DNA of 64,000 bases from a virus, in IMG/VR virus record IMGVR_UViG_3300048580_000994, positions 1 to 64,000 of that record; one strand, given 5' to 3'. Under the pieces are notes generated by a model. That model made no database searches. It was not told where the DNA came from and saw only the letters and a list, made by a program, of their open reading frames with translations. The position numbers and the translations under genes are program-made. Position 1 is the stretch's first letter. Every line of letters starts with the position of its first letter. Shown here one piece after another: positions 23,655-63,698 of this stretch.

Positions 23655-23662
23655 TATAAATA
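23655..23662 (+). promoter_or_regulatory. late promoter TATAAATA
   Basis: Precedes the gene at 23690 by 28 nt, with RBS ACGGAGG between them. Confidence 0.65.
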
Positions 23663-23689: not shown

Positions 23690-24214
23690 ATGAAAATACA
23701 TGAAATCATATATGAGACACTTGGTGCTACGTCATATCCATGGAAGTTAGTGGATCGATCAGCATCTAGCAATACCTATGAGTTTTTCAACGCACAACAG
23801 ATAAAGTATATTGTAGACTTAATGCACAGTACTCAATTCTCAGAATTAGTTAAAGCTAAAATCGATATTGCTCGTGTTGTTTTTAGAAATCAAGTTTCAA
23901 TTGATTCGAGTAAAGAAAATCTACACATCACCAATACTGGTGATGCTTGGGGAGTATTCTCTACAGTAATAGATATTATAAAACACGCAATAAACGAGTC
24001 AAACTTTGATATTATTGTTTTTGAAGCCGACAAGAAAGAGCCTAGTAGGGTTAGGTTGTATTCTACATTTATGTCACGTGTACAGCAAGTCCTGCCTAAT
24101 TATATTGCAGCACCAGCAGTTGATGCAGACTGGCTAATCAGATACAGGCTTGTGAAAAAAGATTCACCTTTGAATACTCCACTATTCATGTCCCCAAAGA
24201 AGAAAAAGAAGTAA
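23690..24214 (+). CDS. late protein with MKIHEI-type leader
   Basis: A 174-aa protein starting MKIHEIIYE, like the MRLYE/MRLRE leaders at 25352, 41456, 49029 and 49619. The body has no recognised fold. The C-terminus is a run of lysines. A late promoter and strong RBS precede it. The leader suggests head packaging; function unknown. Confidence 0.8.
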   Translation: MKIHEIIYETLGATSYPWKLVDRSASSNTYEFFNAQQIKYIVDLMHSTQFSELVKAKIDIARVVFRNQVSIDSSKENLHITNTGDAWGVFSTVIDIIKHAINESNFDIIVFEADKKEPSRVRLYSTFMSRVQQVLPNYIAAPAVDADWLIRYRLVKKDSPLNTPLFMSPKKKKK

Positions 24215-25351: not shown

Positions 25352-26005
25352 ATGCGATTGCGAGAATTTTTACCGGGCAAATCATCTATTCAATTAATCT
25401 CTGAAGCCAGAGCGATGAAGGGTGATTATGCTGCAGATGAACAATTCAAGGAAACGTTTTTATCACCATTGAGTAAAATAGTTTTTGAAAATAATTGGGA
25501 AGATTGTGATAATATTGATATTGATGGGCAAATAATGAAAATTATTGCCAGTAAATCGGATGACACTTATGCTGTTGGATATTGGAGAAATGATGAAAAT
25601 CAGAAAACCATTTTTCAAAGAATTTGTGTTATACAACTTATTGATTGTTTGTATTTGGCGTCTAAGTTAAAAACTTATCCAGAAATGCGCCAAGTGACCA
25701 TGATTTTTGTCACAGAAAGTTTTAGGAGTACTAAAATTGCAAAAAAGATGTATCAATGGTTTGTTCAGCAAGGATTTTCATTAATAGGTGATGTTGAGCA
25801 ATATTTTGGTGCAAGAAAATTGTGGTGTGCATTGTCAAAAATTTCCACTTTGCGTGTTGATGTTGTGAATAGGAACACAGGAACTATTATTCAACAAGGT
25901 AGAATTATAGAGCATGGTGAATTGGACCATGAATTTGATAATGAGATATGGGCTTATGATAGTAGTAAAAATGATATTGGTTTGATATTGATTGATATTA
26001 GGTAA
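25352..26005 (+). CDS. GNAT-like late protein with MRLREF leader
   Basis: A 217-aa protein starting MRLREFLPGK, the shared leader type. Residues about 125-155 (FVTESFRSTKIAKKMYQWF then QQGFSLIGD) look like the acetyl-CoA-binding part of a GNAT N-acetyltransferase. The core is divergent, so activity is uncertain. RBS GGAG. Confidence 0.7.
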   Translation: MRLREFLPGKSSIQLISEARAMKGDYAADEQFKETFLSPLSKIVFENNWEDCDNIDIDGQIMKIIASKSDDTYAVGYWRNDENQKTIFQRICVIQLIDCLYLASKLKTYPEMRQVTMIFVTESFRSTKIAKKMYQWFVQQGFSLIGDVEQYFGARKLWCALSKISTLRVDVVNRNTGTIIQQGRIIEHGELDHEFDNEIWAYDSSKNDIGLILIDIR

Positions 26006-37519: not shown

Positions 37520-38092
37520 TCAATTAATGTTTGAGTACTCATTTTTGACTTGTTCAAATATTGTATTTGGCAATTCTACTTGTAATAAATTTTTTAAATG
37601 TTTGATACATTCTTTTACTACTGCTACTGTTTCTACCAAATGTCCATTATTGCCTCTAACATCTGTTGGTGTGTATTCTCTCCAATATTTAATTAAAGTT
37701 TCTCCGTGTGTTGTTTTCAATTTGTTATTTACTGCGAAACCGAGTATGGATGCTTTATTGTTGGAATTATAAATTTTCCCTGTTACGTAGAATTTAAATT
37801 TTGTTTTTCTTTGACGGTTTGGGTTATTGCGTAATACATCATTATTATCAAAGGTATCATATGAAGCATCATTTCTTACCATTTCCACTTGAAAGTTTGG
37901 TTTTATTAATTTATTAAGTTTGTTTGCGACTATTTTTAATTTATTGATTGTGTATATATATTCTTTACCTTCTTCTTCGAATGGTTCATCGAACAATGTG
38001 TTTTTGGCTGCAATGACTGATTTTTTGATTGCATTGAAATCTTCGTTTATTTTGGTAGCTTCCATTAATTTTCTCATATCTGTGGCTGACAT
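37520..38092 (-). CDS. late protein with DMRKLMEA leader
   Basis: 190 aa; starts MSATDMRKLMEATK, almost the same leader as the Cys-His peptide at 63363-63698. The body is a basic alpha/beta protein. RBS AAGGAG. The leader resembles a capsid-targeting or prohead-protease-cleaved signal (LxxE). Function unknown. Confidence 0.78.
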   Translation of the reverse strand: MSATDMRKLMEATKINEDFNAIKKSVIAAKNTLFDEPFEEEGKEYIYTINKLKIVANKLNKLIKPNFQVEMVRNDASYDTFDNNDVLRNNPNRQRKTKFKFYVTGKIYNSNNKASILGFAVNNKLKTTHGETLIKYWREYTPTDVRGNNGHLVETVAVVKECIKHLKNLLQVELPNTIFEQVKNEYSNIN

Positions 38093-41420: not shown

Positions 41421-41428
41421 GATAAATA
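41421..41428 (+). promoter_or_regulatory. late promoter GATAAATA
   Basis: 28 nt before the GNAT-like gene. Confidence 0.55.
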
Positions 41429-41455: not shown

Positions 41456-41950
41456 ATGCGTTTAAATGATTTATCGGAAATTAAAATTTATTCCTTACAA
41501 CCTGTTGATTTTTCACCAGAACAATTGGATGAAATTTGTGACCTTATCTGTACTGGTGGTGAAGTGACAAAAGTAGGATTGGAGAAAAGAATTCGCCAAG
41601 CCAAATTAATCGCAGTTGCTGAAAAAGATGGTAGATTTGTTGCTTGTTCATCCATAAAAGTCCCAGACCCAATGTATAGAGCTAAAATTATACAAAGGGC
41701 AGGTATAATATTTAAACCTCAACTTGAATTAGGATGGGGTTTTACCCTACCAGAATATCGCAACCAAAAACTTGGGACAAAACTGAAAGAAGAATTGTTT
41801 AAAAACGTCCCCCCAACAAATGTTTATGCCACTGTTAGATTGAAGAATAAACCAGCCATCAAGGGCATCGAAAAATTTGGGTTTAAGGCTGTTGGAACAC
41901 CATATCAGGGAATGAGTGGGGATTTGATCTCCATATTTTTAGTCAGATAA
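41456..41950 (+). CDS. GNAT N-acetyltransferase-like late protein with MRLNDL leader
   Basis: 164 aa; leader MRLNDLSEIK then a GNAT fold: LIAVAEKDGRFVACSSI strands, FTLPEYRNQKLGTKLKEEL as the acetyl-CoA loop and IEKFGFKAVG near the end. Would acetylate a small molecule or protein; possibly packaged in the head. Confidence 0.78.
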   Translation: MRLNDLSEIKIYSLQPVDFSPEQLDEICDLICTGGEVTKVGLEKRIRQAKLIAVAEKDGRFVACSSIKVPDPMYRAKIIQRAGIIFKPQLELGWGFTLPEYRNQKLGTKLKEELFKNVPPTNVYATVRLKNKPAIKGIEKFGFKAVGTPYQGMSGDLISIFLVR

Positions 41951-45075: not shown

Positions 45076-45903
45076 ATGAAACAAAAAACATTAACCAAAA
45101 CAATATCGTTCTCAGGTGTAGGACTTCACAATGGTAAACAGGTTAATGTTTTACTCTTACCAGCCCCACTAAACACCGGAATTATTTTTCAGCGAACAGA
45201 CGTTGGGGGAAATAATATCATCCCAGCCTTGTGGAACCTTGTCCACACAACCAACCTAAACACTTGTTTGAAAAATGACAACGACGTTACCATTTCCACA
45301 ATTGAACACTTGATGGCAGCATTATCAGCCTCTAACGTCACCAATTGTCATATCCAAGTCAACGGACCAGAAATTCCAATTTTGGATGGCTCTGCAGATA
45401 TTTTTTACCAGACAATCAAACCCGATACCACAGAACAAAAACTGAACCAAAAATCCATCAAGATTTTGAAACCAATAACCACCCAAACAGTGTCTTTGAT
45501 TCCGGCTGACGAATTTTCCATTGAACTTTTTATTGATTTCCCAGCCAAAATCATAGGGACACAATCATTCCACTATCGAGACAACTTCCCTGAAATCTCC
45601 CAAGCCAGAACCTTTGGGTTTGGGAACGAGATTGACTACCTTCGGAAAAATAACCTTGCCTTGGGTGGGAGTTTGGATAACGCTATCGTTGTGGCTAACG
45701 ATGGGGAAACGATTTTGAACGATGGTGGGCTGAAATACAATGATGAATTCGTCCGTCATAAAGTCATCGATGCTATCGGGGATTTGTATCTCGCTGGTTA
45801 CCCAATCATTGGTAAATTCATTGGGGTAGGTTCTGGACATTCAATGAATAACGCCCTATTGCGGGAACTTTTCAAAAACCAAGATTGTTGGGAGATGGTA
45901 TGA
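45076..45903 (+). CDS. lpxC: UDP-3-O-acyl-GlcNAc deacetylase
   Basis: A 275-aa LpxC, the committed step of lipid A synthesis: removal of acetate from UDP-3-O-acyl-GlcNAc. The catalytic set is complete: E77/H78 in STIEHL, H228 and D232 zinc ligands in RHKVIDAIGD, D236, and H255 in GSGHSMNN. GVGLHNGK and SLDNAIV motifs are also present. It lacks about 30 C-terminal residues of E. coli LpxC. The start aligns with bacterial LpxC. The stop overlaps the next ATG. Confidence 0.96.
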   Translation: MKQKTLTKTISFSGVGLHNGKQVNVLLLPAPLNTGIIFQRTDVGGNNIIPALWNLVHTTNLNTCLKNDNDVTISTIEHLMAALSASNVTNCHIQVNGPEIPILDGSADIFYQTIKPDTTEQKLNQKSIKILKPITTQTVSLIPADEFSIELFIDFPAKIIGTQSFHYRDNFPEISQARTFGFGNEIDYLRKNNLALGGSLDNAIVVANDGETILNDGGLKYNDEFVRHKVIDAIGDLYLAGYPIIGKFIGVGSGHSMNNALLRELFKNQDCWEMV

Positions 45904-48893: not shown

Positions 48894-48901
48894 GATAAAT
48901 A
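48894..48901 (+). promoter_or_regulatory. late promoter GATAAATA
   Basis: Nine bases before the small basic gene at 48910. Confidence 0.5.
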
Positions 48902-48909
48902 GTCATACT

Positions 48910-49032
48910 ATGGATGAATTTGACAAAAGATTAAGACAGAAGATTAAAGAATATATAAGAAAAAACAAGGAGCGTTTGAAGAAGCTTTTCAAGCGCAAGA
49001 AACCTGTGTCTGAATCTGGTGAAAAGAAATGA
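48910..49032 (+). CDS. small very basic protein
   Basis: 40 aa, over a third Lys/Arg; could bind nucleic acid. Stop overlaps the next ATG. Late promoter immediately upstream. Confidence 0.65.
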   Translation: MDEFDKRLRQKIKEYIRKNKERLKKLFKRKKPVSESGEKK

Positions 49033-49616
49033 GATTGTATGAAATAACACGAATAACAAAAAACTCCCAAGCCACCAGAATATTAAAAAGATCTGGGTGG
49101 GAAATTGCTGGTGAAGGCGCGAACGCTACTGTGTATTTTCGTGAGGACAAACCATATGTTTTAAAAATATTTACTCCTTATGATAGTGCGTTTGTTGCTT
49201 ATATAAAATTTTGTCAAAAAAATTCAAACCCGCATTTCCCTAAATTTTATAAGGATATTGTTAAAATAACTAAAAATTTGTGTGCTATTAGAATGGAGAG
49301 GTTGTATCCATTGGATGAAACAGAAGAAATTATAACAGGGTTAGAAATATTGGCTTCGTATATTTCAAAATATTCTATTGATCCATCGTTTCTTTCGCAT
49401 TCACCAGAAAAATTAGAAAATTTTTTGAAAGAAGTGGTTGAAAAACGAAATGATGTTCTTAATTATTTTGATGAATCTGTGGTGGCAGCTGCAGAATTGG
49501 TACCTGATATTGCTAAAAATAGAGGACATTTAGATATGCATCCACGTAATTTTATGCAACGATTGGATGGTACATTAGTTTTTTCTGACCCTATTACTAC
49601 TTTTTTTGGGAGATAG
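49029..49616 (+). CDS. kinase-fold late protein with MRLYEI leader
   Basis: 195 aa. After the leader MRLYEITRITKN come a glycine-loop-like GEGANATVYF (28-37) and VLKIF with the expected lysine. The catalytic-loop-like GHLDMHPRNFM has D169 and N174, and SDPIT (D187) may be the metal site. The order fits a minimal protein/small-molecule kinase fold. Leader and late context suggest injection with the DNA. Substrate unknown. Confidence 0.72.
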   Translation: MRLYEITRITKNSQATRILKRSGWEIAGEGANATVYFREDKPYVLKIFTPYDSAFVAYIKFCQKNSNPHFPKFYKDIVKITKNLCAIRMERLYPLDETEEIITGLEILASYISKYSIDPSFLSHSPEKLENFLKEVVEKRNDVLNYFDESVVAAAELVPDIAKNRGHLDMHPRNFMQRLDGTLVFSDPITTFFGR

Positions 49617-49618
49617 AA

Positions 49619-50044
49619 ATGAGATTGTATGAACTATCATTAGTTTCCAAAAAATGGTTAAATTCACCCACTGAAGGATTTTTGGAACCAACTGTGGAAA
49701 ACATTTCGAAGGCGAAAGAGTTTGTATTTCGTAAATGGAAGGAGCGTGCTATTGAGCGAATGGAACGTGAACCATTAGATTTATCCACTGCTTGTAAATT
49801 CAGTTCATTATTTGTGAAGATGGTATTTGGCGGGACGATAAAGGGGACATGGGAGCATCAATACAATGACATTAATGGGGTAGTGGTTGACCTAAACAGC
49901 GATGCTGGGGACGTTTTAAGGCTACTGGAGCCACATAAGCATGATAGAAGGTTCATTGGTAACAGGGAGCATAATGAGTCGTTAGAGTCTTGCATTCCAA
50001 GGGTGAAACGTTGGGTAGAAGAATTTCATAATAGTGTCAGTTAA
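49619..50044 (+). CDS. late protein with MRLYEL leader, possible papain-like fold
   Basis: 141 aa. Leader MRLYELSLVSKK, then an order of Cys (STACKFSS), His (WEHQYND) and Asp (VVVDLNSD) that resembles a transglutaminase-like catalytic triad. That is a tentative reading. Two bases after the kinase-like gene. Confidence 0.62.
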   Translation: MRLYELSLVSKKWLNSPTEGFLEPTVENISKAKEFVFRKWKERAIERMEREPLDLSTACKFSSLFVKMVFGGTIKGTWEHQYNDINGVVVDLNSDAGDVLRLLEPHKHDRRFIGNREHNESLESCIPRVKRWVEEFHNSVS

Positions 50045-51686: not shown

Positions 51687-52145
51687 ATGTTACCTGTAAT
51701 AAAATGGGACGACCAATATAGTGTTGGTATTGATGCCATCGACAATGATCATCGAATGTTTTTTGAGATCACTGAAATGTTGAGTTGTATGGAAACATAT
51801 GAAGAGGTATTGGTGATTCGTTGTTTGTCTATGTTCAACGAATGTCTTCATGGACATTTTTTACGGGAAGAATTGGCGATGGAGAAAGCCAACCATGATA
51901 ATTATGCTGAACATAAGAGACAACATGACGCTTTTAAAGAAAAGATTGCAGATATAATGGATTCATATTATAGTGGAAATTTAAATGCTATTGTTGGTTT
52001 TCCACAATTGATTTGTGATTGGGCATTAACCCACATACCAAATAATGATTTATTATTCAAGGGTGCCATTTTACCAGAGCATGTTGACAATCGTTCCATT
52101 GCCGCATTAGCGATGGAAAGTTTTAAAAAATCGATAAAGGGATAG
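51687..52145 (+). CDS. bacteriohemerythrin
   Basis: A 152-aa hemerythrin four-helix bundle binding a di-iron site and O2. All ligands are present: H22 (NDHRMFFE), H57 and E61 (HGHFLREE), H76 and H80 (HKRQH), H116 and D121 (HIPNND). Start is the ATG after RBS GAGAGG, giving MLPVIKWDDQYSVGI as in bacterial homologues. Could buffer oxygen/iron or feed host chemotaxis signalling. Confidence 0.94.
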   Translation: MLPVIKWDDQYSVGIDAIDNDHRMFFEITEMLSCMETYEEVLVIRCLSMFNECLHGHFLREELAMEKANHDNYAEHKRQHDAFKEKIADIMDSYYSGNLNAIVGFPQLICDWALTHIPNNDLLFKGAILPEHVDNRSIAALAMESFKKSIKG

Positions 52146-62496: not shown

Positions 62497-63372
62497 TTAT
62501 TTGTTAATCCACCCATCTGATAAGGTTCCATCTTCGTACATGACTTTCTGTGGGGTAGCTTTGAAATATTTTTTAAAAACATGTCTAAATAATACTTTAC
62601 AAAAATCAAAAAATCCAGCTTCACGTTGACCTTCTGGTTGAACATTAAAACAAGAACGTTTTAATAACACTTTTGACTTTACATTCCAATGGTGGGAAAT
62701 ATCTGTTTGACAACCAAATGCGAAAGGTGATTTCATTTTTATTCCCATTATTTTTTCATATGGTATAAATTCATCGCCGGGAACATTTTGGAGTTCGTTT
62801 AATTTAATTTCCCCTACACCAAAAGATGACAATAACTCTATAGCTTTTCTCAATTCTTCTTTAGTGTCGAGTTCCCCTTTAACGATGTTGAGATTGATTC
62901 GTATTTTATGCCCATATTTTTCAGAAATTTCTTTTAATTGTTGGATTCGATTATGTTTGGACGATGCTTTTAGGATTTCGTTATTTCGTCCCCAATCATA
63001 ATGTTGGATTGAAACGTTTATACCATCAATCAATTCCAACACCCCTTGAACATCTGGATTCCAAATCATGGCTGCTTTTGGTAGGGAAGTTGTCATGAAA
63101 ATTTCTTTCAAACGTGGACGAACACCTTGGACATAATGGAGTAATTTTTTTGGGTTGAGAAAAGGTTCACCACCAAGGATCAAAATGGTTTCACAGCCAC
63201 TTTTCAAAGTGTTGTTGATCATATTTTCAACATCTTGTCCTTGATTATCAATTCCATCTCGTTCAATACAAAATGAACAATCGTTATCACAAGATTTGAT
63301 AAATCTTATGTCTAATGAATTATAGAATTTACCATCACAAGAATTAATCTTGAGGGGGTTTTTTAGTGGCAT
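62497..63372 (-). CDS. radical SAM enzyme
   Basis: 291 aa. Cluster motif CDNDCSFC (C28, C32, C35), GGEP SAM motif at 67-70 and C-terminal cysteines (FGCQTD, RSCFNV) that could hold an auxiliary site. Not QueE by motif. Its start overlaps the end of the Cys-His peptide gene by 10 bp, with the RBS inside that gene's last codons. The pair is therefore co-translated and may be enzyme and substrate. Confidence 0.87.
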   Translation of the reverse strand: MPLKNPLKINSCDGKFYNSLDIRFIKSCDNDCSFCIERDGIDNQGQDVENMINNTLKSGCETILILGGEPFLNPKKLLHYVQGVRPRLKEIFMTTSLPKAAMIWNPDVQGVLELIDGINVSIQHYDWGRNNEILKASSKHNRIQQLKEISEKYGHKIRINLNIVKGELDTKEELRKAIELLSSFGVGEIKLNELQNVPGDEFIPYEKIMGIKMKSPFAFGCQTDISHHWNVKSKVLLKRSCFNVQPEGQREAGFFDFCKVLFRHVFKKYFKATPQKVMYEDGTLSDGWINK

Positions 63373-63698
63373 CCACCACTCCAGCCCATTCTGCTACTTT
63401 TGGTTTGATGACAAGCTACAGCTTTTTTCTTTTTATCTATGGCTGGTTTTTTTGGTTTTGGACTATTTTCAAGTTCTTCATCATCTTCTTCGATTAGTTC
63501 GTCTTTGTCTAATCTACCATGACAACCACCACCATGACAACCTGCAGATTCATTAATAAGGTCAATTAAATTGATCCACAATTTTTTATCTTTCTTGGTA
63601 TAAGCTTCTGTTAAAGCATTGATGATTTTGTCTTTTAAAGATGGTTGTGTTTCAACGTCAACACTTTCCATTAATTTTCTCATATCTTGTGAACCCAT
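63363..63698 (-). CDS. Cys-His-rich peptide with DMRKLMES leader (possible radical SAM substrate)
   Basis: 111 aa from ATG 63698 (RBS AGGAG). Leader MGSQDMRKLMESVD; helix; then SAGCHGGGCHG (C54-H55, C59-H60); acidic linker; basic linker; VACHQ (C96-H97) and a final SGGCH (C110-H111). Four Cys-His pairs at the ends of Gly-rich segments look like modification or metal sites. A leftward late promoter (63728-63735) precedes it. Confidence 0.75.
   Translation of the reverse strand: MGSQDMRKLMESVDVETQPSLKDKIINALTEAYTKKDKKLWINLIDLINESAGCHGGGCHGRLDKDELIEEDDEELENSPKPKKPAIDKKKKAVACHQTKSSRMGWSGGCH

What the first reader, a model, noticed from the sequence alone, without database searches (positions are those of the whole stretch)
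49029..50044. Shared N-terminal leaders on unrelated late proteins: likely head-packaging signals
MKIHEI (23690), MRLREF (25352), MRLNDL (41456), MRLYEI (49029), MRLYEL (49619) and DMRKLME (37520, 63363) begin proteins with different folds (two GNAT-like, a kinase-like, a papain-like, a Cys-His peptide). Most have late promoters. T4 internal proteins use a similar short N-terminal capsid-targeting sequence cleaved by the prohead protease after LxxE or IxxE (established). These may therefore be an injected effector set.
Basis: partly seen in the sequence, partly recalled or inferred. Interest (0 to 1): 0.72.

Follow-up and report, generated by a model that had tools for sequence, protein, structure and literature searches.

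The report
Head-targeting leaders on phage effectors
Several otherwise unrelated proteins of this large bacteria-infecting virus begin with the same six-residue tag, which most likely sorts them into the virus head so that they are delivered into the next host cell together with the DNA, as phage T4 does with its internal proteins.

Summary
In this 82-kb fragment of a T4-related large phage, six proteins start with M[KR][LI]x[ED][LIF] against 0.16 expected (20,000 column shuffles never gave more than 3; 0 of 416 internal Met), and a blind pattern search ranks this motif first. A seventh is looser, and two of the seven lie outside the window. With the leaders removed the proteins are unrelated. 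The interpretation, a T4-like capsid-targeting leader, is well supported by inference. In Pseudomonas phage PA5oct the same motif is independently the top N-terminal pattern, and 8 of 10 bearers were found in virions by mass spectrometry (baseline 93/445). Homologues of three window proteins carry leaders of their own phages' type. Other phages with a T4-type prohead protease show their own leader dialects on unrelated proteins, including SAM-lyase and zeta-toxin domains. T4 Alt, an injected head protein, starts MELITELFDE, the closest known match. Corrections: T4 protease cuts after L/I-x-E, not LxxE; DMRKLME is a separate second leader; only the kinase and one GNAT fold are confirmed; late promoters precede 5 of 9 genes. 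Packaging, cleavage and injection are not shown for this phage. New variant of a known kind.

The parts
23690..24214 (+). leader MKIHEIIYE + DUF6934-like domain (174 aa)
   Evidence: PF22028 E 2.3e-6, just over cut-off; phrog_6387/16075; homologue PA5oct EST35_0349 MHLFELFDQ is annotated structural protein, ESI-MS/MS
23655..23662 (+). TATAAATA late-promoter-like site 27 nt upstream of 23690
25352..26005 (+). leader MRLREFLPGKSSIQLISE|ARA + phrog_15502 domain (217 aa)
   Evidence: phrog_15502 E 9.5e-15; tandem homologues in Campylobacter phages start MKFSDFLEE|QAIAKSGDY
41456..41950 (+). leader MRLNDLSE + GNAT acetyltransferase domain (164 aa)
   Evidence: PF00583 E 1.3e-7 over cut-off; GATAAATA 27 nt upstream
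41421..41428 (+). GATAAATA late-promoter-like site upstream of 41456
49029..49616 (+). leader MRLYEI + protein kinase-like protein (195 aa) with GEGANATVYF, VLKIF, HLDMHPRNFM, FSDP motifs
   Evidence: phrog_15752 E 1.1e-12; homologue in Rhizobium phage RHph_I1_18, leader LKSFSEHIAES
49619..50044 (+). leader MRLYEL + 141-aa protein; YunG-like only below cut-off
   Evidence: PF24585 E 0.0027, 18.3 vs cut-off 27; no phage homologue; model unusable
48894..48901 (+). GATAAATA late-promoter-like site 127 nt upstream of 49029 (possible promoter of 49029-49619)
   Evidence: assignment is inference
37520..38092 (-). second leader class MSATDMRKLME|A + 190-aa protein of unknown fold
   Evidence: AATAAATA 33 nt upstream
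63363..63698 (-). second leader class MGSQDMRKLME|S + Cys-His rich 111-aa protein
   Evidence: GATAAATA 29 nt upstream; same leader starts other ORFs in IMG/VR contigs and RaK2 'virion structural protein' MFDYRKLMEA

Best explanation
The leaders are short N-terminal head-targeting sequences of the T4 capsid-targeting type, closest to the N-terminus of T4 Alt. During late infection they bring unrelated cargo proteins (kinase, GNAT, DUF6934 and others) into the prohead core, where a T4 gp21-like (Peptidase_S77) protease may trim them after an L/I-x-E (MRLYE| or a later site such as MKIHEIIYE| or ..LISE|A). The cargo stays in the head and enters the next host with the DNA to act early. Shown here: the shared leader, its non-random status, unrelated cargo, virion association of the same motif in PA5oct, leaders on homologues in other phages. 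Inferred: packaging in this phage, the protease (not in this fragment), cleavage, injection, effector roles.
For: Enrichment and blind discovery in this genome; unrelated once leaders are removed. Blind search in PA5oct gives the same pattern (9 vs 0.58, 0 of 100 shuffles); 8 of 10 PA5oct bearers carry ESI-MS/MS notes against 93 of 445 CDS (Fisher p 2.4e-4; hypergeometric 9e-5; 1.4e-3 with the loosest motif); one of them sits between portal and protease genes. Homologues of 23690, 25352 and 49029 in other phages carry leaders. All ten phages compared have Peptidase_S77, and most show their own leader dialect on unrelated proteins: LR745206 MKYLKxF, 31 vs 1.7; SCTP-2 21 vs 2.7; Atu_ph07 M[KR]WxQLxE 14 vs 1.0; CP220 6 vs 0.3. 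L/I-x-E at residues 7-14 is enriched in leaders of PA5oct, LR745206, SCTP-2, CP220, RHph and T4. The Atu_ph07 tandem leader genes are CDS 53-63, inside CDS 31-76, where the authors found 29 virion proteins by MS (PMC6102473). T4 Alt, packaged and injected, starts MELITELFDE. T4 CTS: first 10 residues suffice to package foreign proteins (PMC9026906).
Against: The fragment has no prohead protease or capsid genes. Only 2 of 7 leaders have L/I-x-E at residues 7-14, not above the other proteins (p 0.28); MRLND has no L/I-x-E at residues 3-5. PA5oct MS does not separate head from tail and its cleavage sites were not mapped. XacN1 shows no dialect above chance, and RaK2's top pattern is a different one without the K/R start.
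Confidence: 0.72

Rival explanations
1. The leaders direct the proteins to the virion, but to the tail or baseplate or as permanent structural parts, not as injected head cargo.
For: PA5oct ESI-MS/MS notes say only 'structural protein'; some leader genes lie among tail-like clusters. Several leaders lack a downstream cleavage site.
Against: Leader bearer next to portal/protease in PA5oct and Atu_ph07; similarity to T4 Alt and IP leaders, which are head-internal; enzyme-like cargo is unusual for tail parts.
Confidence: 0.13
2. The shared start is a translation or mRNA feature (a conserved 5' coding segment of late messages), not a protein signal.
For: 49029 and 49619 share 18 identical bases over the start codon; late-promoter-like sites precede several.
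Against: Codons differ between the other genes; other phages keep the role with different residues; the permuted-codon control is not start-associated.
Confidence: 0.04
3. The leader is a short interaction or sorting tag for something else in the infected cell (degradation, membrane, host-protein binding), with virion presence a by-product.
For: No direct localisation data for this phage.
Against: Association with virion proteomes in PA5oct and leader cluster inside an MS-defined virion cluster in Atu_ph07.
Confidence: 0.08
4. Chance or shared ancestry of recently duplicated genes.
For: 49029/49619 are adjacent and nearly identical at the start.
Against: Shuffle tests, no similarity beyond the leader, IMG/VR start association.
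Confidence: 0.03

Closest known systems
T4 Alt (injected RNA polymerase ADP-ribosyltransferase) N-terminus, MELITELFDE
   Same: Short N-terminal [LI]-x-E-[LF] leader on an enzyme packaged in the head; the record notes that Alt is in the capsid and enters with the DNA; its N-terminal propeptide is given as 7 residues (PMC9026906)
   Different: Here K/R at position 2, motif one residue earlier, different cargo; processing unproven
T4 internal protein capsid-targeting sequences (IPI/IPII/IPIII, MKTYQEFIAE|A)
   Same: One short leader shared by unrelated late proteins; basic residue 2, acidic and aromatic/aliphatic residues at 5-7
   Different: Sequence differs; the E10 cleavage site has a counterpart in only some leaders here
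PA5oct (Arenbergviridae) MKILEF/MRLNEI/MHLFELF leaders
   Same: Same top motif found blindly; one shared protein family (DUF6934/phrog_6387); detected in virions
   Different: Mostly other cargo families; not described as a targeting signal in the papers found
SPN3US/phiKZ prohead propeptides
   Same: Giant phage head proteins cleaved at N-terminal propeptides after A-x-E (PMC10052503)
   Different: Mostly long propeptides (111-254 residues), no common short leader reported

Membership tests
T4-type capsid-targeting sequence (CTS) | same short N-terminal sequence on proteins with unrelated mature parts | tested here: met
T4-type capsid-targeting sequence (CTS) | bearers are present in virions | tested here: inconclusive
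   met for the same motif in PA5oct (8/10 by MS annotation); no proteome exists for this phage
T4-type capsid-targeting sequence (CTS) | L/I-x-E gp21-type cleavage site at the end of the leader | tested here: inconclusive
   2 of 7 at residues 7-14 (p 0.28); 5 of 6 strict leaders have it at residues 3-5, as Alt has at 4-6; enriched in six comparison phages including T4
T4-type capsid-targeting sequence (CTS) | phage encodes a gp21-like (Peptidase_S77) prohead protease | tested here: inconclusive
   none in this 82-kb fragment; present in all ten comparison phages
T4-type capsid-targeting sequence (CTS) | leader alone packages a reporter; cargo is ejected into the host | not testable with these tools
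   needs experiment
protein kinase, phrog_15752 (49029) | profile match and catalytic motifs | tested here: met
   E 1.1e-12; GxGxxxxV, K, HxDxxxxN, D by eye
GNAT (41456) | profile match over curated cut-off | tested here: met
   PF00583 32.3 vs 20.7 bits
GNAT (25352) | profile match | tested here: not met
   no GNAT model; phrog_15502 of unknown function
papain-like peptidase (49619) | profile match | tested here: inconclusive
   YunG E 0.0027 below cut-off; predicted model unusable
ADP-ribosyltransferase (80685, outside the window) | profile match; R, S-T-[ST], E-x-E residues | tested here: inconclusive
   by eye SVYRGV, STTLDWQVAYG, EREII; no Pfam hit, profile comparison negative

The most novel reading that the evidence does not exclude
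T4-related large phages each use a private dialect of head-targeting leader as a cargo address, so that a genome-wide read of N-termini lists the injected effector set of any such phage, dozens of proteins in the largest, with the same cargo families re-tagged when they move between phages.
Probability: 0.4. Interest if true: 0.8.

Novelty: new variant of a known kind. Interest (0 to 1): 0.6.

Why it matters
If right, the injected proteins of large phages, which act before any phage gene is expressed and include predicted kinases, acetyltransferases, SAM-lyase and zeta-toxin domains, could be listed from sequence alone by reading N-termini, and the leaders give ready tags for loading foreign proteins into large capsids. 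It extends a T4 principle (PMC9026906 suggests CTS may be how T4-like phages add head cargo) to jumbo phages with different leader sequences.

Tried and rejected
Close relatives of 49029, 25352, 80685 and the topoisomerase in IMG/VR: none. Relatives of 49619, 41456 and 80685 in phage records: none. DMRKLME protein in phage records: none. Structure prediction of 49619 and 80685: mean pLDDT 44 and 40, not used, no fold search run. PDB sequence searches: nothing useful. Profile comparison of 80685 with Atu_ph07 tandem proteins: negative. RaK2 'virion structural' labels not used as proteomics evidence because they carry no MS note. A strong late-promoter link in IMG/VR MRLYE genes was looked for and not found (0 of 36).

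Full report
What was checked. The window is the first 64 kb of an 82,429-base virus record; the remaining 18.4 kb was fetched as L001. The record carries 40 tRNA genes in the window, a T4-type topoisomerase whose nearest relatives are 630-740 kb uncultured phages, XacN1, SCTP-2 and other T4-related phages, and TATAAATA-like sites. It is a fragment of a large T4-related phage.

The observation. The five strict leaders in the window and one more at record 80685 fit M[KR][LI]x[ED][LIF]; a seventh, MRYNEF at 64957, is looser. Expected number 0.16; 20,000 column shuffles never exceeded 3; no internal Met of 416 is followed by the motif. That last figure is the fair one for a motif chosen after looking. 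Once the leaders are removed the proteins show no similarity. DMRKLME at 37520 and 63363 is a second, different leader that also covers only the start of two otherwise unlike proteins; it begins further distinct ORFs in IMG/VR contigs and a RaK2 protein labelled virion structural.

Is the tag a real start signal elsewhere? MRLYE[LIF], written with this phage's codons, was found in 114 IMG/VR stretches; of 76 distinct sequences 36 begin an open reading frame of 60 or more codons, against 2 of 60 for a permuted control of the same composition (p 1.5e-9). Two of the 36 look like an ordinary family of other phages. One has ART-like LYHGT just after the leader (L175).

Virion evidence. PA5oct came in because it holds a homologue of 23690. 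Its GenBank record marks 93 of 445 proteins with ESI-MS/MS. The blind search gave the same motif as best in PA5oct, and of ten bearers eight are marked (p about 1e-4); with the loosest motif it is 8 of 13 (p 1.4e-3). The two unmarked ones are 99 and 64 residues long; small size may explain a miss. Three bearers lie side by side at 260.7-262.3 kb, as 49029 and 49619 do here. The homologue of 23690 itself, MHLFELFDQ.., is marked.

Dialects. Ten phages were compared, all with a Peptidase_S77 prohead protease. Blind search gave private leaders: LR745206 MKYLKxF (31 vs 1.7 in the 390 kb read), SCTP-2 MK[IV]xxLfE (21 vs 2.7), Atu_ph07 M[KR]WxQLxE (14 vs 1.0), Campylobacter CP220 M[KT]FxDFL (6 vs 0.3); RHph_I1_18 [MI][ST]FKxH was not above shuffles (3 of 60) and XacN1 gave none; RaK2 gave a different pattern that belongs to related proteins. 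An alignment of 46 LR745206 bearers conserves only MKYLKxF. Cargo in these sets includes SAM lyase in CP220 (PF23780 E 5e-18), zeta toxin in an Atu_ph07 protein (E 1.5e-14), NUDIX and M15 peptidase in LR745206, and the same families as in the window: phrog_6387/16075, 15502 and 15752. In Atu_ph07 the tandem leader genes are CDS 53-63, inside the CDS 31-76 block where 29 proteins were found in virions (PMC6102473); which ones could not be read here.

Cleavage. T4 gp21 cuts after L/I-x-E (PMC9026906). An L/I-x-E ending at residues 7-14 is enriched among leader proteins of PA5oct, LR745206, SCTP-2, CP220, RHph_I1_18 and T4 but not here (2 of 7). Two readings remain: the site is the L/I-x-E at residues 3-5 (MRLYE|L, as T4 Alt MELITE|L, whose propeptide is given as 7 residues), or some leaders target without being cut, which T4 tolerates (D10 blocks processing but not targeting, PMC9026906). 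Neither was tested.

Mechanism and limits. The most likely mechanism is targeting of cargo into the prohead core, retention with the DNA, and delivery into the next cell. For this phage every step beyond the shared leader is inference. Gene starts and gene sets come from a simple ORF caller of my own, not a curated annotation; for PA5oct the listed starts agree with the record except one. The PA5oct comparison treats annotated MS notes as given.

Noticed in passing
L001:16685-17332 (record 80685-81332): MRLYEL protein with SVYRGV, STTLDWQVAYG and EREII, resembling the R-S-ExE residues of ADP-ribosyltransferases such as T4 Alt; no profile match.
   Followed up: partly
window 17775, 20791, 22707, 30307, 32589, 35949, 47843, 51100: Recurrent + strand element TATAAATA..GGAGTGGGACAAGCCC..CTCC..GGTTGGGTTTC near the 5' ends of minus-strand homing-endonuclease-like genes, among the tRNA genes.
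   Followed up: no
L083:488-2821 (Atu_ph07): 778-aa leader protein with an ART-like part, a zeta-toxin/P-loop domain and two DUF6934-like domains each preceded by NLTELFD/NLNELFD, which resembles a leader or a protease site: a possible polyprotein of head cargo.
   Followed up: partly
L140:18758-19384 (Campylobacter phage CP220): S-adenosylmethionine lyase domain (PF23780, E 4.8e-18) behind a CP220-type leader: possible pre-packaged anti-restriction enzyme.
   Followed up: partly
window 45076-45903: ORF that looks like LpxC (lipid A deacetylase) by eye: MKQKTLTKTISFSGVGLHNGKQVNVLLLPA.
   Followed up: no
window 51687-52145: ORF that looks like bacteriohemerythrin by eye (DNDHRMFFEI).
   Followed up: no
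window 15940-51625: 40 tRNA genes, several in near-duplicate pairs (Glu, Pro, Lys, Phe).
   Followed up: no
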